A DNA stretch of 10,399 bases from Lenzites betulinus (Eukaryota; Basidiomycota; Agaricomycetes; Polyporales; Polyporaceae). Made by a program: the position numbers and the translations under genes. Below, in pieces: positions 1 to 10,399 of the stretch; position 1 is the stretch's first letter, and each line of letters opens with the position of its first letter. The notes under the pieces were generated by a model. That model was not told where the DNA came from. It ran no database searches and worked only from the letters and a program-made list of their open reading frames with translations. The stretch covers positions 1 to 10,399 of the forward strand of contig JABYQU010000107.1 in NCBI GenBank assembly GCA_022264855.1, given 5' to 3'.

Positions 1-2382
1 GGCGACGATCAACGAGAAGCGGCGCAACCGCGAGGACTGGCTGAGCGAGGTCGACCCGTTCCTGGACGACTGGGACCAGCCGGCGGTCCGCGAGACGTCG
101 CAGGGACATGGACATCGAGAAGCTGACCGTGATGTTGACGCAAGCACCACCGCTACGTCCGCGAGCGCGACGAGCCGATGGAGGACACGACGCCCAAGGG
201 CAAGGGCAAGGCAAGGCGAAGGCCACGGAGGCGCTGGAGGCCGTCAAGCTGGAGCCGGCGATGGCGAAGACCATGAAGTACCTGCTGTTGGTGATGCGGA
301 ACAGCGACGACTTCTTCAACGTCGGCCGGAGCACGGGGTACCGCAACAACGCGCGCTGGCGATGCAGGTGCGCGCGATGTGGGACGTCATCCGCGACGTC
401 CACGGGCCCATCTACGGCACGGACGCGGGCGAGGAGCTGCACAAGCAGATCCTGCAGTTCTTCACGACATACAGCTCGCTCTCGCCCACGCAGGTGTTCC
501 CGAACGAGGACCTCGTCGCGCTCAAGCGGCGCACGATGTTCACCAACTGGGATCAAATGCACTTCGCCGAGTTCAAGCGCAACGGCGAGTGGCACGGGTA
601 CGACCTCTTCCGCGACATCGGCTCGAACGACACCTTCTTCGCGCAGCAAAGCCGCATCGTCAACTACACCAAGGACATCGAGGCCGTCGTGTCCAAGGTG
701 ATGTCCGTCTCCGTCGCTCAGCACGACCCCTTCGGCGCGGCCATCTCCGGCAACACGGACAAGGAGGGGCTCATGCTGGCCACCCCGGTCGCAGAGGCTC
801 TCGATGTCCTCACCCAGGTACGCCCCCATCGCGCCGCGCTCTCTCATTCCCTCTTCGCGCACACGCTGACACTTGTCCTTGTCCCTCTCTTCTGCAGGCC
901 CTCGTCCAGAACGCGTCGCGCCAGGAAGCGCGTCTGCTCGCGGCGAGCCCCCTCCCCGTCGTCCTCCGCCACAACCACCTCCAGAAGGACTTCACGCGGC
1001 CCTTCAAGGAGTCCATCGACGACCCCGACCACTACACGCACCTCACCGACTTCCGCGACAACGACGAGGTCAGGTACCAGAAGTATCTCAGCCTCGTCGT
1101 CGACAAGTTCGGGGAGGAGGGGTACAAGAACCCCCTCCAGTACGCGTACCCGCAGGACATCGCCGAGGACCTCGCAGGGTTCTCGAGGAGGACGACGACG
1201 ACGACACCTCCTCCCACCGACGGACGGCGACCCCCCCGCCCGAGCAACGGCCTCCGCACGACGATGAGGAGGACGAGGAGCCCGCTCCGTCGGCCCCCCG
1301 CCGCGGCATGCTCATGGATCTCTCCCAGCGCCCTCGCGCACCCCCGCCCGACACCGAGGACGTCGAGATGGAGCCTCCCTCGCAGCCCGCACCCTCGCAG
1401 CCCGCGCCCTCGCAGCCCGCACCCTCGCAGCCCGCGCCCTCCCAGCCCCCGTACCCCCCGGCCCAGCGCCCCCCTGCCCGCTCGCCCTCCCCCTCAACCT
1501 CCCAAATGGCGGGGCAGACGACGATTCCGCTCTCGTCGCAGGAGCTTCGCGATATCGAGGCATGGGCCCCGCAGAACGGCAGCGGCATCGGTGGTAAGTA
1601 CACATCATTTTGGCACAGGACAGCTGTCTCTCCGCCGGCACTGCCGTTCGAGAGACACCCAAGAAATGGCCCGCAGGCCTGTCTCTCCATCGGCAGCGCC
1701 GTTGGCGAGACACCCAAGAAATGGCCCGCAGGCCTGTCTCTCCATCGGCACTGCCGTTCGAGAGACAGGTCGATCGGGGCCCTCAGGCGTGTCTCTCTAT
1801 CGGCACTGCCGTTAGCGGGACACTCTCGTTTCCTACATCGTTACTCATTTCCTTCGCAGACACTCAGGCAATCGAGGACCCCATGAACATCGACGCCAAC
1901 CCAGAGCTCCCCCCGACCACCCGCGTCCCAGAGACCATCGTCGAGGAGGACACCGCCCCCGACATGCAGGACATCCGTCCCTCCGTTGGCCCGTCCGCTA
2001 CGCCGCAGGAGCAAGCTGCCGGCACCCCCAAGCCTCCGCCTGCCCCTCGCAAACGTCCCCGCGCCAACACCGCCAGTACGTCCCTCTCCCTTCCCCTCCG
2101 CTCCCCCACCACTCACCCACCCACTCACTCACCCACTCACTCACAGACTCCACAGCCTCCGCATCGCAGCGTTCGCCCCCCCACAAGCGCAACACGCCCG
2201 CTCCCCCCGCTCGCCACCAGCAGCAGCCCGTCGCCAGCTCCTCCCGCTCGACCCGCCAGCGCTCCGCCGCAGCAGCCGCGAGGCCCGACAAGGACGTCGA
2301 CAAGGACAACGACCCCGCTCCCCGCACCCGCACCCCGCCCCTCCCAGGTATCCCTCCCCCCGCACCCACGGACTACGATTAG
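1..2382 (+). CDS. Gene A: unrecognised protein, 5'-truncated by the window, four visible exons, frame breaks near the 5' end
   Basis: I do not recognise the family. Visible exons are <1-817, 898-1593, 1860-2075 and 2147-2382 (stop TAG 2380-2382). The introns are 818-897 (GTACGC...GCAG, phase 0), 1594-1859 (GTAAGT...GCAG, phase 1) and 2076-2146 (GTACGT...ACAG, phase 1). About 655 residues fall inside the window. The N-terminal two thirds look globular, with runs such as YLLLVMRNSDDFF and FRDNDEVRYQKYLSLVVDKF. Next come an acidic run (EEDDDDD, about 1184-1204), five PSQPA repeats, and a proline/serine tail with basic, nuclear-localisation-like clusters (APRKRPRAN, PPHKRN), ending PTDYD. Continuity needs frame changes near 104 (extra base), 143 (extra), 215 (missing), 352 (missing) and 1175 (missing). 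These are either sequencing indels or early decay. The downstream splice phases all fit. Gene existence is well supported; function is unknown. Confidence 0.78.
1377..1451 (+). repeat. Five tandem 15-bp coding repeats (PSQPA) in gene A
   Basis: Five consecutive 15-bp units of the type CCCTCGCAGCCCGCR encode PSQPA four times and then PSQPP. They lie in the low-complexity, proline-rich C-terminal half of gene A. The units are almost identical at nucleotide level, with only A/G alternating at the last base and a variant fifth unit. This suggests recent slippage expansion and likely length variation between strains. Confidence 0.85.
1594..1859 (+). other. Long intron 2 of gene A, hosting palindrome array 1
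   Basis: The donor is GTAAGT at 1594-1599 and the acceptor is CGCAG ending at 1859. A CTCAT branch-like site lies about 14 nt upstream of the acceptor. Splicing joins codon GGT plus G to AC (GAC), and the downstream frame (DTQAIEDPMNID) stays open. The intron is 266 nt, while the other two introns of this gene are 80 and 71 nt. Removing the 198-bp repeat block would leave 68 nt, a normal length for this locus. Confidence 0.8.
1625..1822. repeat. Palindrome array 1: four 33-bp palindromes at exact 55-bp period
   Basis: Copies lie at 1625-1657, 1680-1712, 1735-1767 and 1790-1822. Each is a 15-nt left arm (consensus TGTCTCTCCATCGGC), a 3-nt centre (ACT or AGC), and a 15-nt right arm beginning GCCGTT and ending GACA. 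Arm mismatches number 3, 2, 2 and 3. The three spacers are all exactly 22 nt. The first two (1658-1679 and 1713-1734) are identical; the third (1768-1789) resembles them only in its last 12 nt (10 of 12). The block sits wholly inside intron 2 of gene A. The arms could form hairpins in DNA or in pre-mRNA. Confidence 0.95.
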
Positions 2383-2693
2383 GTAGCCGCACTTAGCATC
2401 CCCCCCGCGCATCGCGCCCCGCGCATCGCACTTCGCGTACAGTAGACTCACCGCATAGTCCCTCTACTCGTACTGTTACCCCCCGCCCCCCACATGTACT
2501 GCTTCTAGCCAGCCTAGAGTACATCGTTTACTTACCCTTCTCCTCGTCGGCTCCGGGCGCGCGGCCTCGGCCCCTCACTTACGTTCTCCTTGCCTTCCCA
2601 TATCCTTGCATACCACCTCCCCCTTTAACAATATATCGTCAATCATCATCTGGCCACATTGCCTCCCACAGCGAGTGAATGTCAAACGTATTG

Positions 2694-2726
2694 ATTAGGG
2701 TCCTAATTCCTAATTGCATTCCTAAT
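2694..2726. repeat. Short AT-rich repeat cluster: ATTAGG/CCTAAT inverted pair and three TCCTAAT
   Basis: ATTAGG (2694-2699) and CCTAAT (2702-2707) form an inverted pair separated by 2 nt. TCCTAAT occurs three times, at 2701-2707, 2708-2714 and 2720-2726. It is a distinctive AT-rich island in a GC/CT-rich intergenic region. It could be a protein-binding site or a 3'-end element, but nothing in the sequence decides this. Confidence 0.45.
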
Positions 2727-3152
2727 CACACTCGGTCGCCTGCGCCCTCCGTCAGTCCCTCCGCCCCATCAACAAGCTGAGTGCATGCATCAACGCAGAC
2801 TAACCACCACCCCCGCATATCGTGCTCCACCCTCCCTGCCTCTTTACTAACATCGTAAGCCATAGCTATCCCTAACCCTGCGCCCCCTCCTGTGCTTCCC
2901 CCTGCTCCGTCCCCACCCTCTCACCTATACCCACTCCCTCTCGCCTTTCTATGTTTTATATCATATCATTCCTCATTTATCCCACTCTCCTTCCTTTCAT
3001 TGTTCCTTCTTATCAAATATAATTTTCATCTCTCCCATCTCCGATAACCTTGTCCATACCTCTCCTCCCCGCACCTTATCCCTCCGCTCTGCACTTTGTA
3101 TTCCCCTCCACTCTGGAGTTTCTTCCGCCTCCGGAGTTTGTGTTCCCCTCCC

Positions 3153-3198
3153 CTCCGGACTTCCCCTCCGGACTTCCGCTCCGGACTTCTCCGGACTT
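3153..3198. repeat. Four copies of CTCCGGACTT
   Basis: Exact copies start at 3153, 3166, 3179 and 3189 (spacing 13, 13 and 10 bp). Related CTCCGGAGTT lies at 3129-3138 and CTCTGGAGTT at 3111-3120. The core CTCCGG is shared with the heptamers beside the telomere. This is a small degenerate tandem repeat upstream of gene B. Confidence 0.75.
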
Positions 3199-3523
3199 TG
3201 TATCCCTCCACATTCTGCATCCACTAAAACACTTCCCTCTATTACCTCCCTCTCACACCCTTTCTTCTCCGCTCTCTCCGTACGCATTATTCGTTTTCTC
3301 ACCCCACCTCCGCCCACTATCCCCGCCCTCTTCCAACTCTAATACAGTCCACTTATTTCATCATCGTCCTCCCAATCCATCCACCCATCAAATCTCAGTA
3401 GCCAATCTCATCTCCATCCGCAATCTCAGATCGTAATCTCAATGTCTCATTTCAAATCCCAACACCTGATCGTCGTCACCACACAGCCTCCGGCCTTCTC
3501 CTCGCTTCCCATTTCAAATTCCC

Positions 3524-3689
3524 TTAAAAGTTTATTCCCTATCTGTCAGCCTCCGCACTTCCGCACTTCGCCCACCTCTCTCCCCGGCACTTCTCTGCTT
3601 CTCTCCCCCACACTTCTCTGCTTCTCTGCTTCTCTCCCTTGCTCCTGCGCTCCTTCTCTCCCTCCTTCAACCCCCCACACTCTCCTTCC
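3524..3689 (+). promoter_or_regulatory. Probable core promoter / CT-rich leader of gene B
   Basis: A TTAAAA element (3524-3529) lies about 160 nt before the gene B start codon. It is followed by nearly uninterrupted C/T sequence, including a 17-bp direct repeat at 3588-3604 and 3611-3627 (core CTTCTCTGCTTCTCT). CT-rich blocks just upstream of start codons are common around transcription start sites in filamentous fungi. The assignment rests on position and composition only. Confidence 0.35.
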
Positions 3690-6600
3690 ATGTCTGTGTC
3701 TTCCATCGACGACGATCTCGACCTCCAAGATCTCCTCGACAACGCCCAAGTCGCCCACCATCCTGGGTAAGTCTTTCCCCATTCCATCCCTCCTCGTCCC
3801 CCCCCTCTCATCGCTCCCCCTTCCGATTGCACTCATGCCTTCCATAGCCACCCTCAGGGCTCCCATGCATTCTCAAATGACGACGATCCCATTCCTGCCA
3901 CAAACGCCCCCTCCTTCGCCCTAGACCTCGCTGCCATCCCAGACACCCTCGACGCCGACGACGCTGGCAACCAAGACATCCTCGACCTCGCCATCCTCCA
4001 GGCAGCCCAGCCCAACCAACACTATATCGACACCTACCACGACGCGCCGGCCTACAATCTCCACCTCACCCACCTTCGACATCTCCATGACCGCGGTGAC
4101 AAGCGCGCCGCCGCCGCCCTTTTGACCCGCAAGAATACCCTCATCCTCGACCCCGAGTTCGTTTACCCCCACCTGGACAACAATATCGCCTGGCAGGTGT
4201 ATCAGGTACGCCCCTCCATTGCAGCTCCCCTCACTTGCCCCCTCAACTCCAGCCATCTCCCCTCGCTCACAGCACCGACTCGACTATTACTGTCGAGTCC
4301 CCAACGACATCGGCTTCAACGCCGTCCTTCCCAACATGCAAGACCCCGACGTCCAACATCCAGTAGGCTGGACATTCAAGATGACGTTCAAGAAGCGTTA
4401 CATCTCCTACCCCGGCGACATCAAGGTCCTCGCCTTCAACCCTCGAGGCGCGATGCTGTACATCGGTCAGTCCCACGACAACGAGTCTGTCTGGTGGACC
4501 CTCTTCCCCCGCCAAGCACTCGAGCCGTACCCATCAGTCGAGCTCATGACTGCTGACACCGGTCCGTCGACCATGGATCCCCTCCTCGCCCGCATCAACA
4601 TCGCATGTCTGCTGTACATGATGCACAGATCAGGCTACACGAACTTCTACCTCCGCACCCGCTACCCCGACATCTCCTCCAATGCTGCGTTTACAGCGCA
4701 TGTCGGCGATCTCCTGTAAGTCCCCCCTCTGTTTGTGCATGTCATTTCATTCAAACCACCGCCTGCTGCAGAGACATCGACCCCATGGAGTTCTCAACAG
4801 AGCAGCTTGGTGCGTTGCAGGAGACCATCGTGCGGCTGTACCCGTCCTGGTGGGCGAAGGCTCCGGCCTCTTACAAGCACCCGCTGCTTGAAGGCAGGGT
4901 CCCTGCGGCTGTCGTCCTCAAATACGGCCAGGACCGGCATGTGTGCAACCCCCCCACAGCGGCGAACGACGCAGAGCTCTGGCATCGCAGCTGCGATTTC
5001 TCCAAGCTCTCCCGCGTCGCCTTTGCGCTGGCGACCCACTACCGGTGAGCACGCCCCCATGGACGCTTCGCCTGCTCTGTCTGGTGTGCGCCGACTGACT
5101 GCTATCGCTGTAGGGTGTCGCCTGTCCAGTCCTGGAACGCCATCGACCCGCAGACCATCGTGAACGCCCACCCTGTGATCTACACCACCGCAGATCCAGA
5201 GACACGCGAGGTAGTGGAGGACCTTGCGAACTACCCACTCCACGACGGAGACGAACGCGAAATACAAGTGTTCGGCCCCAGCGGCCGCCGCATACCCCGC
5301 CACAGCGTCACGTACTTCGACCCATACGAGCCCTGCGCTGTGCTCCAGAACCTCGGCGTGGTCTCGCAGCTGTTCGCCAGCCAGCCCACCCACAACAATA
5401 TCTGGACATACGACGAGGACGGCGCCATTGTGCGAGACCGGGGCCCTGCCAACCAGGACGAAGGCGAGGTCGACGCTATGCTGGATGGGATCGACCCGCC
5501 ATCCGTGCACCTCTATCCGATGGGCTTCACCCGTCATGGGCAGTGGCAGGCGAACGGCGTCATCGACCCCTTGCGCCGCCACATCTCCGCCATCTCGCGC
5601 TCTCTCAAGCAGCACGAGGGAGGGAGCGCCGCGGTCGAGGGCATCAAGAGTCAGTGCTATAATAATATAGCACACTATACGCGCCACTCCGCCCGCCACC
5701 ACATCGCGCAGCGCGGCGTGCTCACTGGGACGACTGGAGGTGCCTGGGCCAAGACCAACAAGGCGCGTGCGACGGCGACGGCCCTCTTCGCGTCGTGTTC
5801 TCTCAGCAACCCTCACACCGATCTGTGTGGGCAGCTCGAGCGCGCCGACCAGACGTTTCTTCGATTCGAAAACGTCTACACTGTGCACCTGCAGCGTCTC
5901 GATCCTGACAACTGCACTGGGCGACAGCTGTACCTCAAGGTGATGATGCCTTTGTCCTCCGCCTGCGCGCACCCGACCGTCCTCGACGCGATCAAGGCGA
6001 CGAGCAAGGTCTTCAGGCCGGGCGTTTTCCCCGATCTCATGCTCTGGACGACGTATCCCCTGCGTGTGCTCCTCGAACAGTTCTGGAGCAAGGTGTCGCC
6101 CTCGCTGACCCCGGCGGTGACCACCACGCCCAATCCCGTCGACCTGGAGATGATCGCGATCCTCGAGCGGCTTATCAACTTTGCGCACACTGGCGCGATG
6201 AAGGTGCTCGCCACCGGCGTCATGGATAAGCTGTGGCCCAGCCGCGCGGTGGTCGACCACGGATTCCCGTGCTTCTCCCCTGCTCTGTTTCTCGGAGGCG
6301 ACACCGGGTTGCTTCCTTCAGTCAGCCTGAACGACTGGCCACGGCATCTGATAACGGGCTATCCACTCGTGGCTTCCAAGCGAGCACTCGAGATCACCTA
6401 CGGCAGCGATGTCTTCACTGTAAGTAAACACCTCCAATCGCGCACGCCCTTCGACATGCACTCCTCCGTCTCCAGGTGGATGTGTCCCGCCATCGGCACT
6501 GCCGATGGAGAGACAGTATGAACGGTGCTGACAGAGGTGTCTCTCCATCGGCAGTGCCGATGGAGAGACAGTATGAATGACCGTGGTAGGGTGTCTCTCC

Positions 6601-8560
6601 ATCGGCAGTGCCGATGGCGGGACACATCCACCTGTACCATTGTTACTGTCTCTCCATCGGCATTGCCGTTGGCGGGACACCCTACCACGGTCATTCATAC
6701 TGTCTCTCCATCGGCACTGCCGATGGAGAGACACCTCTGTCAGCACCGTTCATACTGTCTCTCCATCGGCAGTGCCGTTGGAGAGACACCCTCACCTGGC
6801 GTCATGTTCTGTCCGCTTACACACCTGCACAGACATATCACACCTTGTTCCACATTCATTCAACAGTGTCGCGTGCACTCAACACAGGAAGAGCTCCCGA
6901 GGACATCGTGGCCTTTCGCGTCAAGATCATGGCCACCATCGTAGCCGATACATTCATCGCGGACGTCATGACTGCTGTCAAGGTCGCAGTACTTGAGGAG
7001 ACACAAGAGGCCTTTGACAATCCCACACACATCGATCGCGACTTTGCACTCGCACGCAGAGCATCGCTGAAGAAGTGGCTCAAGTACGAGGAGCCCCTCA
7101 ACTACGGCCCCAACAGGATCCATTTCGCAGACCTCGTCCGCGCGGTCTCCGCTCAGCAAGAGGATATGGTGCACGGACTGCCCCCCTCCTCCACGCGCAG
7201 CTCTTCCCTCGAGGCCTTCGTAGACAAGATATACAAATGGGCGATATCCAGCACAGTCGGCGCCCGCGCCCCGTTGTACAAGCAGGGCTCCACAGGCGTC
7301 GTCCTGCGCTCCATCATCGAAGAAGCCAAGCGCGCCCTCAGGGCACACTCAGAGACAGAACGCGAGTCAGAGCTCAAGAAGGCAATGGTCAGAGCCTTCA
7401 CCGCCAAGCAGGTCCACTACATGCCAGACGCTCTCCCAAACCCCGCGGGCCAGGGCTCCCCGTCCCATCAGCCGTCCATCCACGCATGGACAACCCTCGG
7501 CGCCGCCCCACAGGCTCGCTCTCTCACCGCGGCCAACGCTCGCACACACTCCGAGCGCATCGCATTCGAGCTCCACGCCACTGCCCAGTCTCTGGAAGAC
7601 AGCGACGTCCGCGGCGACTGGACCTTCCAGGAGATCTCCCTGCAGCACATCCACACCATCCTCAACCGTCGTGTCACCCCCGTCGACTGGTCGTATGGCA
7701 CCGCCCTCCGCTCCGCCGTCGGCATCACCCGCTCAATCTACGCATGGGCCTCCCAGCGTTTCTCCGAAGACATGCAGGATTGGACTTGCTCCCTCGCTCT
7801 CTCCCTCGCTATCATCCTCACCAAGCTCCTCCCCAACATCTTCTATCCCCATCCCCCAAAGAGTAACATCCTCAGCGCCATCGCCTCCGCCCCGCTCTCC
7901 AAGCCAGCCGCTTGCATCGCCGCCGTCCGCCGCGTCCCTTTGGATCCACCTTCCTCATCAGTCAAGGGCCTCACCAACAAGCCCCTCTACGCCACTCAGG
8001 CTGCCATCTGGCTCCTCGCCTGGATAGACGAGAACTCTCCCCTCAGGACGGCCATCAAGGCAGGCAACGCCTCCACGCTCAAGGAGTTCAATTCCAAGCA
8101 CTGTAAGTCCTCGCCTCGTCCCCCGCCCTCGTTAACACACACTCATCGCCCCCCTCCCCGCCTCTGTGCAGCCCACAAGGGCCTCAACCATATCAACCTC
8201 ATCCGCTTGGGCATAGCTTATGGCAACGCAGGAAGACTCTTCAATTCCGCTCGCGTCAATGAAGACTACCGCGTTCGCTCCACCTCCGATCTCAAGAAGT
8301 GGGCATCTTCAGTCAGGTCTCACCTCACGTCCCTCCCAGAGGGGCCCTTCAACCTCGTGTCTGCCATCTTCGGTCTCGACGCAGCCCTCAAACTCAGGGA
8401 CAAGGGCGAGTTTCCTGGCATGAATCCCGCCACCGTCGCCTCTCTTCAGACAGCCTCCGCCAAGCAACGCTCTATCGCATCTTCCTCCAAGAGGCCTCTC
8501 GACACCGACCTCGCTGACTCCGACACCCTCCCTCCTCGCCAGCGCCGTCGCAATCATTAG
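3690..8560 (+). CDS. Gene B: large unrecognised protein, seven exons, about 1371 aa
   Basis: Exons are 3690-3766, 3848-4205, 4273-4715, 4772-5044, 5114-6419, 6833-8102 and 8172-8560 (TAG). They sum to 4116 nt (1371 aa), with phases agreeing at every junction. Introns are 81, 67, 56, 69, 413 and 69 nt, all GT-AG. The start MSVSSIDDDLDLQDLL follows a CT-rich leader. Residues 1 to about 75 are acidic. The centre (about 145-820) looks globular, rich in aromatic, Cys and His residues, for example KYGQDRHVCNPP and RFENVYTVHLQRLDPDN. A hydrophobic stretch (CSLALSLAIILTKLLPNIF) lies near residues 1135-1155. The C-terminus has nuclear-localisation-like basic groups (SSSKRPLD and terminal RQRRRNH). I found no polymerase, helicase, integrase or transposase signature by eye. 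Intron 5 is anomalous because it holds palindrome array 2, so the exon 5/6 junction is the least certain. A nuclear role is inference. Confidence 0.83.
6483..6788. repeat. Palindrome array 2: six 33-bp palindromes, 54/55-bp period, mirror-ordered spacers
   Basis: Copies lie at 6483-6515, 6538-6570, 6592-6624, 6647-6679, 6701-6733 and 6756-6788. The second and fifth have perfect 15-nt arms: TGTCTCTCCATCGGC and GCCGATGGAGAGACA around AGT or ACT. All begin TGTC and end GACA. Spacers are 22, 21, 22, 21 and 22 nt. The fifth (6734-6755) is the exact reverse complement of the first (6516-6537), and the fourth (6680-6700) of the second (6571-6591). The order is therefore A-B-C-B'-A', with C at 6625-6646. 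This is the same 33-bp element as in gene A. Confidence 0.97.
6494..6777. repeat. Large inverted repeat with exact 102-bp arms
   Basis: Positions 6494-6595 are the exact reverse complement of 6676-6777. Between them lie 80 bp containing palindromes 3 and 4 and spacer C, which pair only imperfectly. On a transcript this would form a long double-stranded stem, competing with the six small hairpins. The lack of mismatches outside the palindromes implies a recent inverted duplication or continuing gene conversion. Confidence 0.93.
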
Positions 8561-8888: not shown

Positions 8889-9887
8889 CTACTCTGCCTC
8901 AGTGCTACCTTCTGGCGTCCACTCAGATGCTGAATCCTCCGAGTCTTCCATCTCCATCTCCGCCTCCTCCTCAGCCTCGATGTCCCCAGGCGCATCCTCC
9001 ACCCCACGCAGTTCGTCTATGAGCGCGGCAAAGTGCTCGCCCAGGATCTCCTCCCTCTGCTCTCGCAGTTCGGCCATCTCCGACCGCATCTCCTTCATCT
9101 CCCTCCGCAGGGTTTGCACCTCCACCAGCAGCGCATACAGCAGCTCTGTGTTGCAGAGCCCTCCCTTTTGCGGCCACAGCGACGCCCCACGAGACATCTC
9201 CTGTCCGAAGTTTCGCTTCTTGGGCCTCGGCGTCCCGGGCGTCCCGGGCGTCCCTTCACGCGTCCCCGGCACGTGACCCTCGTGGCGCGCGTCCTGGACG
9301 CCTGCCCCGGAGCCGGAGGGAACAGGCGTCCCCGCGGCGCTCATGCCGCCGCCTTCCGCCCCGGGCCGCACTCCCACCTTCCGTCGCTTCTTCTCCGGTG
9401 GGCCGCCCTGGAACGCCGTGCATTGCGTCTTCTGGCGCCGGCACTCTGTGCAGGAACGCCTCCGGCCACCTTCAAAGTAGCAGGTGAGGCCTTGCCTCTC
9501 ACACCGACTGCACGGCTGCCTAAAACCCGTGTCAGCTCTGAACTTACACCTCCGGGGCCCGGTGTCGGAACTCCGAACTCCGAACTCTGAACTCCGCCAT
9601 CGGAGCTCGCGTCCCTGCACTTACTGGGGCACATACACCTCCCCCTCGTGATCCTCCTCCGCTGCCCTCTTCTTGCTCGCCTTTCCCTTCTCACTGCCAA
9701 CCTCCATCCTCACTCCCTTGTCCTCCGACTTACGCTTCCCCTCCGCCTTCGTCTCCGCCCTCTTCCGATCCTCCTCCGCCTCCTTCGCCGCCGCCGCCCT
9801 CTCCTGCCGCTTCTTCTCCATTCGCGCCCGGAGCTCGTCCAGTTGCGCAGCCAGGCGCCCTTCTTCCTTGTCTGAGGCTGTCGGCAT
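8889..9887 (-). CDS. Gene C: Zn2Cys6 binuclear-cluster protein with flanking coiled coils, two exons, 297 aa
   Basis: Exon 1 is 9887-9625 and exon 2 is 9519-8889 (TAG). The 105-nt intron (9624-9520) has GTAAGT, a CTGAC branch site 12 nt before the acceptor, and TTTTAG. Joining CCC-CA to G-CAG gives VPQQPCSRC. Cysteines at residues 91, 94, 101, 111, 114 and 121 have spacing C-x2-C-x6-C-x9-C-x2-C-x6-C, matching the fungal GAL4-type Zn2Cys6 cluster, so sequence-specific DNA binding in the nucleus is likely. Residues 5-60 form a charged helix (DELRARMEKKRQER). A basic patch follows the cluster (PPEKKRRKV, about 128-135), then a Gly/Pro/Thr linker. A second leucine-rich coiled coil spans about 211-260 and probably mediates dimerisation, followed by an acidic tail. 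The ATG at 9887-9885 was chosen because it starts the charged helix about 75 nt after a TATA box. It is short and has no visible fungal-specific transcription-factor middle domain. Confidence 0.85.
9569..9596. repeat. Four AACTCCG heptamers inside the gene C intron
   Basis: Four contiguous 7-bp units (AACTCCG, AACTCCG, AACTCTG, AACTCCG, top strand) lie within the intron 9520-9624 of gene C. The CTCCG core and 7-bp period match the much larger heptamer array beside the telomere about 480 bp away. This suggests local seeding of the same repeat type. Confidence 0.85.
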
Positions 9888-10020: not shown

Positions 10021-10073
10021 GAAATAATGATGTGAGACCCAATTCTGTGATGTGCACTACGTCTATCCGAGTG

Positions 10074-10248
10074 TCTCCGATCTCCGGTCTCCGGCATCCG
10101 ATCTCCGATCTCCGGCCTCCGATCTCCGGTGTCCGGTCTCCGGTCTCCGGTCTCCGATCTCCGGTCTCCGATCTCCGGTCTCCGATCTCCGGTGTCTGGT
10201 CTCCGGTGTCTGGTCTCCGGTGTCTGGTCTCCGGTCTCCGGTCTCCGC
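10074..10248. repeat. Telomere-associated heptamer array: 25 units of TCTCCGR type
   Basis: The 175 bp divide exactly into 25 heptamers with no insertions or deletions. Most are TCTCCGG or TCTCCGA, with variants CATCCGA, CCTCCGA, TGTCCGG, TGTCTGG (three times, each alternating with TCTCCGG) and a final TCTCCGC. Only 16 bp separate it from the first TTAGGG. It is a subtelomeric satellite. The alternating GGTGTCTGGTCTCC block shows a higher-order 14-bp period (units 18-23). Confidence 0.95.
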
Positions 10249-10264
10249 TCTATGAGGTGATGGG

Positions 10265-10399
10265 TTAGGGTTAGGGTTAGGGTTAGGGTTAGGGTTAGGG
10301 TTAGGGTTAGGGTTAGGGTTAGGGTTAGGGTTAGGGTTAGGGTTAGGGTTAGGGTTAGGGTTAGGGTTAGGGTTAGGGTTAGGGTTAGGGTTAGGGTTA
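10265..10399 (+). repeat. Telomere: 22.5 perfect TTAGGG repeats
   Basis: From 10265 to the last base the sequence is uninterrupted TTAGGG, ending mid-repeat at TTA. The G-rich strand runs 5'-3' toward the window end, so this is the true right-hand chromosome terminus (or the assembly limit within it). There are no variant repeats. Confidence 0.99.

What the first reader, a model, noticed from the sequence alone, without database searches (positions are those of the whole stretch)
1625..6788. An apparently unnamed 33-bp palindromic element in period-55 arrays inside introns of two neighbouring genes
Ten copies of the same 33-bp palindrome (15-nt arms, 3-nt centre, ends TGTC...GACA) occur in two blocks about 4.7 kb apart, at 1625-1822 and 6483-6788. 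Copy length is always 33 and spacer length always 21-22, but the spacer sequences of the two blocks are unrelated. So palindrome and spacing are kept while the spacer is free to change. No copy lies outside the two intron-like intervals. This is the signature of a mobile or amplifying palindrome, comparable by analogy to bacterial REP/BIME sequences or fungal mitochondrial double-hairpin elements. I cannot match it to a known nuclear fungal family.
Basis: partly seen in the sequence, partly recalled or inferred. Interest (0 to 1): 0.85.

Follow-up and report, generated by a model that had tools for sequence, protein, structure and literature searches.

The report
Palindrome arrays of telomere-attached elements
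The repeated palindrome sits in the noncoding gaps of a mobile element that is stacked on the chromosome ends of a wood-decay fungus, and each kind of element studied there carries its own palindrome, which looks like a protein-docking site the element uses to recognise itself.

Summary
The ten 33-bp copies are real (16+1+16 nt) and lie in two introns, but they belong to something larger. The window is a chromosome-end contig of Lenzites betulinus (telomere 10262-10399). The palindrome occurs 141 times in the genome (control 0); the 136 copies placed lie in copies of one cassette near contig ends, in six array positions in fixed order: three in introns, three between genes. The cassette behaves as a mobile unit. 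Homology starts at one base, 174 bp before the first array, in 11 of 11 copies compared, with a conserved 39-bp terminus. Its body points to the nearer chromosome end in 12 of 12 judgeable sites. Its far side is cut at varying points, followed by telomere repeats, another element's terminus or other DNA. A diverged cassette has a different 32-bp palindrome in homologous introns, a third element type a 28-bp one, with steps mostly of 52-55 bp. Mirror positions do not covary, which favours a dyad protein site over a hairpin. Best reading: element-specific operator arrays bound by a dimeric, probably element-encoded protein, working like the motif arrays of VANDAL anti-silencing transposons. Binding, binder and mobility enzyme are unproven; no reverse transcriptase was found.

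The parts
1594..1859 (+). Intron (phase 1) of gene 1 that carries array E
   Evidence: GTAAGT..CAG; frame joins GSGIG|DTQAIED; homologous intron 10 in the C106 model
1625..1657 (.). Palindrome copy E1
1680..1712 (.). Palindrome copy E2
1735..1767 (.). Palindrome copy E3
1790..1822 (.). Palindrome copy E4
1..2396 (+). 3' part of gene 1 (end approximate; open 12-exon, 1507-aa model on C106 by a simple script; unknown family; relative ACG7TL_007383 in Trametes sanguinea)
   Evidence: the window copy shows small frame differences from the C106 copy
3690..8560 (+). Gene 2, 7 exons, 1370 aa, unknown family (deposited as C2E23DRAFT_716408, partial)
6420..6832 (+). Intron (phase 0) of gene 2 that carries array F
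   Evidence: same join in proteins P0001 and P0002
6483..6515 (.). Palindrome copy F1
6538..6570 (.). Palindrome copy F2 (16 of 16 mirror pairs)
6592..6624 (.). Palindrome copy F3
6647..6679 (.). Palindrome copy F4
6701..6733 (.). Palindrome copy F5 (16 of 16 mirror pairs)
6756..6788 (.). Palindrome copy F6
6472..6624 (+). Left arm of the 153-nt inverted repeat that holds half of array F
   Evidence: I1, 92% complementary
6647..6799 (-). Right arm of the same inverted repeat
6055..6056 (.). Uninterrupted site (A^T): on contig C106 another element copy starts directly after the base homologous to A6055
   Evidence: C106 flank 98.5% identical to window 5856-6055 over 200 bp, then TTAAATGTCTC
8889..9620 (-). 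Gene 3 (ORF), with a CX2CX6CX9CX2CX6C cluster, zinc-cluster-like; weak candidate binder
   Evidence: Pfam Zn_clus E=0.0028, 18.2 bits, below the cut-off of 21
10073..10251 (.). 7-bp GTCTCCG tandem repeat before the telomere
10262..10399 (+). Telomere (GGGTTA)n; the element is cut here and capped (C6 runs on about 1.26 kb further before its telomere)

Best explanation
The palindromes are dyad-symmetric binding sites (operators) for a dimeric DNA-binding protein, set in arrays with steps mostly of 52-63 bp in the noncoding intervals of a telomere-attached, multi-gene mobile element (type I, at least 15 kb, from centromere to telomere: terminus, array A, Cys-rich gene, array B, opposed Cys-rich gene, array C, gene 1 with arrays D and E, gene 2 with array F, gene 3, telomere). 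Each element type studied keeps its own palindrome (I in the window; II on C3; III on C57, C17, C48 and others). The arrays would let an element-encoded protein recognise its own DNA and keep its genes expressed in telomeric chromatin, as VANC proteins do for VANDAL transposons, and possibly take part in copying the element to another chromosome end. Shown: element structure, precise terminus, orientation, chain-like stacking, type-specific palindromes, mirrored degeneracy without covariation. Inferred: protein binding, identity of the binder, anti-silencing, route of mobility.
For: 141 sites genome-wide, 0 for the control pattern; six array positions in fixed order. Half-sites invariant at 8 positions (2, 3, 4, 6, 12-15) in 76 of 76 half-sites of 38 distinct copies, the other 8 positions varying. 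Within-copy mirror matches 13.16 of 16 against 13.60 for random re-pairing, P(>=obs)=0.998. Family III likewise 11.68 against 11.65 of 13, 22 distinct copies. Homologous introns D and F of the C3 cassette hold a different palindrome with the same half-site frame GTCTC.C...CGG. Family III: 28-bp palindrome at mostly 55-bp steps, once in an intron (GTAAGT..CAG) of a gene 2 paralog 36% identical to the exon-5 query. Terminus and orientation. VANC parallel: tandem motif arrays in introns and upstream regions, family-specific (PMC5735166, passages).
Against: No binder is identified. Gene 3 was found by tblastn only on C10 and C6, not on the fetched parts of C3. CpG o/e is near 1 both in and outside the elements, so the sequence shows neither silencing nor escape from it. 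Family II copies are often perfect palindromes (6 of 13 sites), which a hairpin would also explain; no covariation test was made for family II. Tandem arrays can arise without function. The invariance is read from copies found with a pattern that fixes those letters; up to 4 mismatches were allowed, which added one site only. Copies are related by descent, so P is a guide. One C57 copy is a composite of type I and type III sequence, so spread may be recombination that copies a chromosome end from the terminus outward rather than transposition of a discrete element.
Confidence: 0.45

Rival explanations
1. Passive minisatellite: the palindromes arose by slippage or template switching, expand and contract freely, and only ride on the telomeric element without function.
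For: Copy number differs by one or two units between copies of the same array (E 3-4, F 5-6, D 5-6, B 4-6); spacers inside an array are often related or inverted copies; chromosome ends recombine.
Against: Palindromes of different sequence, 28-33 bp, recur with steps of mostly 52-55 bp; introns D and F hold arrays in cassettes whose gene 2 proteins are 71-72% identical; 8 half-site positions are invariant while spacers are free.
Confidence: 0.25
2. Sites of the copying machinery: the arrays serve replication, attachment to chromosome ends or partition of the element (iteron-, parS- or subterminal-repeat-like), not gene control.
For: Arrays are spread along the whole element; the terminus holds TGTCTC, the start of the half-site, and telomere-like GGGTTAGGG.
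Against: Insertion junctions lie at the terminus, not at palindromes; the seven distal cut points mapped do not fall inside arrays; no recognisable transposase, Rep or RT in the proteins scanned; the ParB/sulfiredoxin-like look of gene 1 (GGGHR, by eye) found no support in Pfam or PDB sequences.
Confidence: 0.15
3. Independently mobile palindrome (REP/BIME, double-hairpin or MITE like).
For: The type III gene 2 paralog has an array in a different intron and none in the F intron, so arrays do appear in new introns.
Against: No single palindrome with an empty site was seen; the 136 of 141 copies placed are in copies of the telomeric element.
Confidence: 0.07
4. RNA hairpins in pre-mRNA that help splice, circularise or silence (array F forms a 153-nt inverted repeat).
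For: Long inverted repeat in F; perfect copies in family II.
Against: No pairing covariation in family I, slightly fewer mirror matches than random even with G-U allowed, and none in family III; three of six array positions are between genes.
Confidence: 0.05

Closest known systems
VANDAL transposons with VANC anti-silencing proteins (Arabidopsis)
   Same: Family-specific short motifs in tandem arrays in introns and upstream noncoding DNA of the element's own genes, differing between element families, with gain and loss of repeat units (PMC5735166, passages)
   Different: Here the motif is a 28-33-bp palindrome; the elements sit on chromosome ends; no MULE transposase or other Pfam family above its cut-off was found; binding untested
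Terminons / EN-deficient Penelope-like elements at telomeres (rotifers)
   Same: Multi-gene elements stacked on chromosome ends, one fixed end towards the chromosome, other side truncated and capped by telomere repeats, telomere-like sequence near the attached end (PMC6431247, passages)
   Different: No reverse transcriptase in the proteins scanned and no hammerhead ribozyme at Rfam gathering; palindrome arrays; different proteins
MoTeR and FoTeR telomeric retrotransposons (fungi)
   Same: Fungal mobile elements in telomeres (titles and starts of abstracts in the listing only)
   Different: Those are retrotransposons; no RT was found here
Bacterial REP/BIME and fungal mitochondrial double-hairpin elements (recalled)
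   Same: Short palindromes in clusters with free spacers
   Different: No hairpin covariation; units not seen to move singly; nuclear, telomeric, part of a large element
Subtelomeric RecQ helicase families of fungi
   Same: Repeated subtelomeric gene units (PMC7473861, passages)
   Different: Genes 1 and 2 are not helicases by Pfam; 'palindrom' has 0 occurrences in that paper

Membership tests
VANDAL/VANC-type system | Tandem motif arrays in noncoding DNA of the element, motif specific to the element family | tested here: met
   Six type I array positions outside the coding sequence of the models; different palindromes in types I, II, III
VANDAL/VANC-type system | MULE transposase (VANA) and VANC relative encoded | tested here: not met
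   No Pfam family above its cut-off in gene 1 pieces and its whole relative P0007, gene 2, gene 3, Cys-rich pieces or four type III ORFs; no direct comparison with VANC sequences was made
VANDAL/VANC-type system | Protein binds the motif and removes silent marks | not testable with these tools
   Needs binding and methylation data; CpG o/e uninformative
Terminon / telomeric Penelope-like element | Reverse transcriptase | tested here: not met
   No RT in any scanned protein. On the C106 copy no + strand ORF of 200 aa or more lies outside genes 1 and 2; one - strand ORF of 200 aa lies outside all modelled genes and was not scanned
Terminon / telomeric Penelope-like element | Fixed end attached to the chromosome, other end truncated and capped by telomere or by the next element | tested here: met
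   C27 and C73 run into other, unidentified sequence
Terminon / telomeric Penelope-like element | Hammerhead ribozyme and reverse-complement telomere repeats at the 3' end | tested here: not met
   Rfam gathering: 0 hits in 11 sources, six of them with type I termini; the terminus holds only short telomere-like motifs
REP/BIME or double-hairpin element | Hairpin kept by paired changes | tested here: not met
   family I; family III
Introner (intron-creating element) | The intron exists only where the element inserted | tested here: not met
   The paralog at C57:29181 has at the F position a short intron of about 70 nt without palindromes (read by eye)
Zn2Cys6 target site (CGG inverted repeat; recalled) | CGG-N5-CCG core and an encoded Zn2Cys6 protein | tested here: inconclusive
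   Core present in the 38 distinct family I copies; gene 3 scores below the Pfam cut-off and is not found on the fetched C3 parts

The most novel reading that the evidence does not exclude
Basidiomycete chromosome ends carry a class of multi-gene mobile elements without reverse transcriptase that are copied onto chromosome ends from a conserved, telomere-like terminus, and each element type marks its own noncoding DNA with a private palindrome that co-evolves with an element-encoded recognition protein.
Probability: 0.4. Interest if true: 0.88.

Novelty: new variant of a known kind. Interest (0 to 1): 0.75.

Why it matters
If right, it is a further case of sequence-specific self-recognition by mobile DNA, outside plants and at telomeres, with at least three recognition codes in one genome, so co-evolution of site and protein could be tested directly. 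It would also show a way of populating chromosome ends in which none of the usual retrotransposon enzymes is visible, in a fungus that keeps ordinary TTAGGG telomeres.

Tried and rejected
Hairpin or RNA role: set aside as main reading by the covariation tests. Intron-specific role: set aside, since three of six array positions are between genes. Known RNA family: none at Rfam gathering in 11 sources. Gene 2 structure: AlphaFold model with 6 sequences has mean pLDDT 43, not interpretable, no fold search made. ParB/sulfiredoxin idea for gene 1: suggested by eye (GGGHR box), no support from Pfam or PDB sequences. Translated array as a probe for mis-annotated proteins in other species: 8 candidates, none at E<=10. 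CpG decay as a sign of silencing: uninformative. In 24 regions o/e was 0.89-1.10 in the six proximal regions outside type I; inside elements mostly 0.8-1.2, with 0.15 in the 174-bp terminal stretch, 0.77 in intron F and 1.22-1.34 in type III arrays. Pfam PF26608, listed by the protein database for 4 of 6 gene 2 relatives, is not in the library here and remains unnamed. Literature: searches; none of the titles and abstract starts listed names this palindrome or element (83 listed none). Passages of three papers and one abstract were read, so an earlier description elsewhere cannot be excluded. I had no tool that holds orthologous DNA of other fungi.

Full report
What the window is. The window is the whole contig C10 of a 37.4-Mb genome. 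A protein search named it: gene 2 is recorded as C2E23DRAFT_716408 on a 10,399-bp contig of Lenzites betulinus, a polypore. The contig ends in (GGGTTA)n.

The observation. Ten 33-bp copies are present where stated. The symmetry is 16+1+16 with a CGG-N5-CCG core. The pattern is found 10 times in the window and 0 times in each of 50 shuffles. Block 1 lies in an intron of gene 1 (1594-1859), block 2 in an intron of gene 2 (6420-6832). Inside block 2 the spacers occur as inverted pairs, giving a 153-nt inverted repeat.

Genome-wide. A degenerate pattern (up to 2 mismatches) finds 141 sites on each strand, 0 for the reversed control; another without mismatches 82. The regions I fetched hold 136 of the 141, 38 distinct (a similar pattern); where the other 5 lie was not listed. 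The 136 fall into six arrays in constant order from centromere to telomere: A (3 copies), B (4-6 copies, 63-bp step), C (2), D (5-6), E (3-4, window block 1), F (5-6, window block 2). No cassette copy fetched shows all six; C57 does (A to F) apart from its truncated neighbours, others are cut by telomeres, other elements or contig ends. On C106 gene 1 is an open 1507-aa model with D and E in introns (simple script, no transcript evidence). C lies 362 bp before its start, between it and an opposed Cys-rich gene; B lies between two convergent Cys-rich genes; A precedes the first of them. The Cys-rich genes are ORF fragments only; their PHD-like look is below Pfam's cut-off, so A and B could still fall in their untranslated parts.

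The cassette behaves as a mobile element. Upstream of array A, homology between 11 copies begins at the same base, 174 bp before A, and the DNA before it differs, apart from chance extensions of a few bases. All 11 start with TTAAATGTCTC.., preceded by A. The 39-mer ATTAAATGTCTCTTTTTGTAACCCTGGTGGGGGTTAGGG occurs 14 times exactly and once with 2 mismatches. Two insertion sites have an uninterrupted counterpart: on C106 the element starts directly after the base homologous to window A6055 (flank 98.5% identical over 200 bp); on C57 one copy starts after GGTACAA where the related stretch reads GGTACAATACCC. In both the target reads A^T, so the first two bases of the terminus (AT) match the target; this could be a target rule or short annealing. 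The sequence beyond the insertion point was not recovered in either case.

The far side is cut at different points. C56 and C75 run mid-gene straight into TTAGGG repeats. C17 and C57 run into one shared other terminus (ACACAGGGGCAAAAGTCGAGTGGGTGAGGGTTAGGG, here called type III), C13 into a third one, C73 and C27 into other sequence not identified. The type III terminus occurs 12 times exactly and twice with one mismatch. Where contig length or a telomere was known, the body points to the nearer chromosome or contig end in 12 of 12 type I and 10 of 10 type III sites. Not judged: C2, C29 and C106 for type I; C2, C19, C89 and C92 for type III. The sites are not all independent: two C57 copies share truncation point and type I/type III junction and are 99.9% identical over 8.4 kb from the terminus on. 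So there a composite of two element types was copied as one stretch beginning exactly at a type I terminus. That fits elements, or whole chromosome ends, being copied outward from the terminus onto another end, as in break-induced copying (inference), and weakens the picture of a discrete element with two fixed ends.

Each element type studied has its own palindrome. The C3 cassette (gene 2 protein 72% identical; the exon-5 query scored 81%) has TGTCTCGCTGGCGGACGTCCGCCAGCGAGACA at mostly 52-53-bp steps in the homologous D and F introns and at 3557-3796, where E is expected: 28 sites with up to 3 mismatches, control 0. Families I and II share the half-site frame TGTCTC.C...CGG. One of its arrays lies in an intron (GTAAGT..CAG) of a gene 2 paralog 36% identical to the window's exon-5 query. 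The apparently homologous intron in the window has 59 nt and no array, while that paralog's F intron is about 70 nt and has none. So arrays are gained or lost inside existing introns. C73 shows further palindromic arrays with 67- and 84-bp steps.

Site or hairpin? In 38 distinct family I copies, 8 of 16 half-site positions never vary and the others vary. If a hairpin were kept, mirror positions would change together. They match in 13.16 of 16 positions, fewer than the 13.60 expected when half-sites are paired at random (P of at least the observed value 0.998; with G-U 13.53 against 14.20). Family III gives 11.68 against 11.65 of 13. Family II was not tested; 6 of its 13 sites seen are perfect. 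The copies are related by descent, so P is only a guide, but it gives no support to a hairpin and fits a site read half by half by a symmetric protein. GTC and CGGC lie about one helical turn apart in each half (inference).

Mechanism. My best reading is a self-recognition system: a dimeric protein binds arrays in the noncoding intervals of its own element and keeps the element's genes active at chromosome ends. The nearest parallel is VANDAL/VANC, where family-specific motifs form tandem arrays in introns and upstream regions (PMC5735166, passages; PMC10398659, abstract). The stacking on chromosome ends resembles terminons (PMC6431247, passages), but no reverse transcriptase or ribozyme was found, so it is not filed as one. 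Weak candidate binder: gene 3, with a zinc-cluster-like CX2CX6CX9CX2CX6C pattern next to the telomere; against it, tblastn found it only on C10 and C6. Gene 1 is another candidate: it diverges faster than gene 2 (36% against 60% to T. sanguinea; 47% over a 47-aa stretch to C3).

Limits. The gene 2 model was too poor to interpret. CpG statistics were uninformative.

Noticed in passing
C73:2462-2718, 34-192, 6795-6921 (L041): Further tandem arrays with 67-, 84- and 50-bp steps; the first two contain 39- and 41-bp palindromes. Perhaps a fourth and fifth family.
   Followed up: partly
C13:773788 onward (L026): Another terminus-like start, ACTGTCTTTTTGTAATGTGGGTGAGGGTTAAG, resembling the type I terminus, joined to a truncated type I copy shortly before the telomere.
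   Followed up: partly
C6:11083-12345 (L025): Sequence beyond the point where the window's element is capped; by eye it reads like fragments of a telomere-linked RecQ helicase, not tested.
   Followed up: no
C73:4334-4455 (L041): A 64-bp stub holding the first part of the type I terminus directly before a complete terminus, as if an earlier copy had been eroded to its first bases before the next was added.
   Followed up: partly
window 9568-9596 and 10073-10251: GAACTCC and GTCTCCG 7-bp tandem repeats near the telomere.
   Followed up: no
C3:13168-13345 (L043:2868-3045): Three decayed family II palindromes at 73-bp steps downstream of gene 2. Steps of 52, 63, 73, 84 and 94 bp lie near whole helical turns while 55 does not; not tested.
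   Followed up: no
window 60-220 and about 1185: Reading frame of gene 1 shifts relative to the open C106 copy; decay or assembly error in this contig.
   Followed up: no
C57:15.2-41.0 kb: Two 99.9% identical composite stretches (truncated type I joined to type III), each starting exactly at a type I terminus: a composite was copied as one unit.
   Followed up: partly
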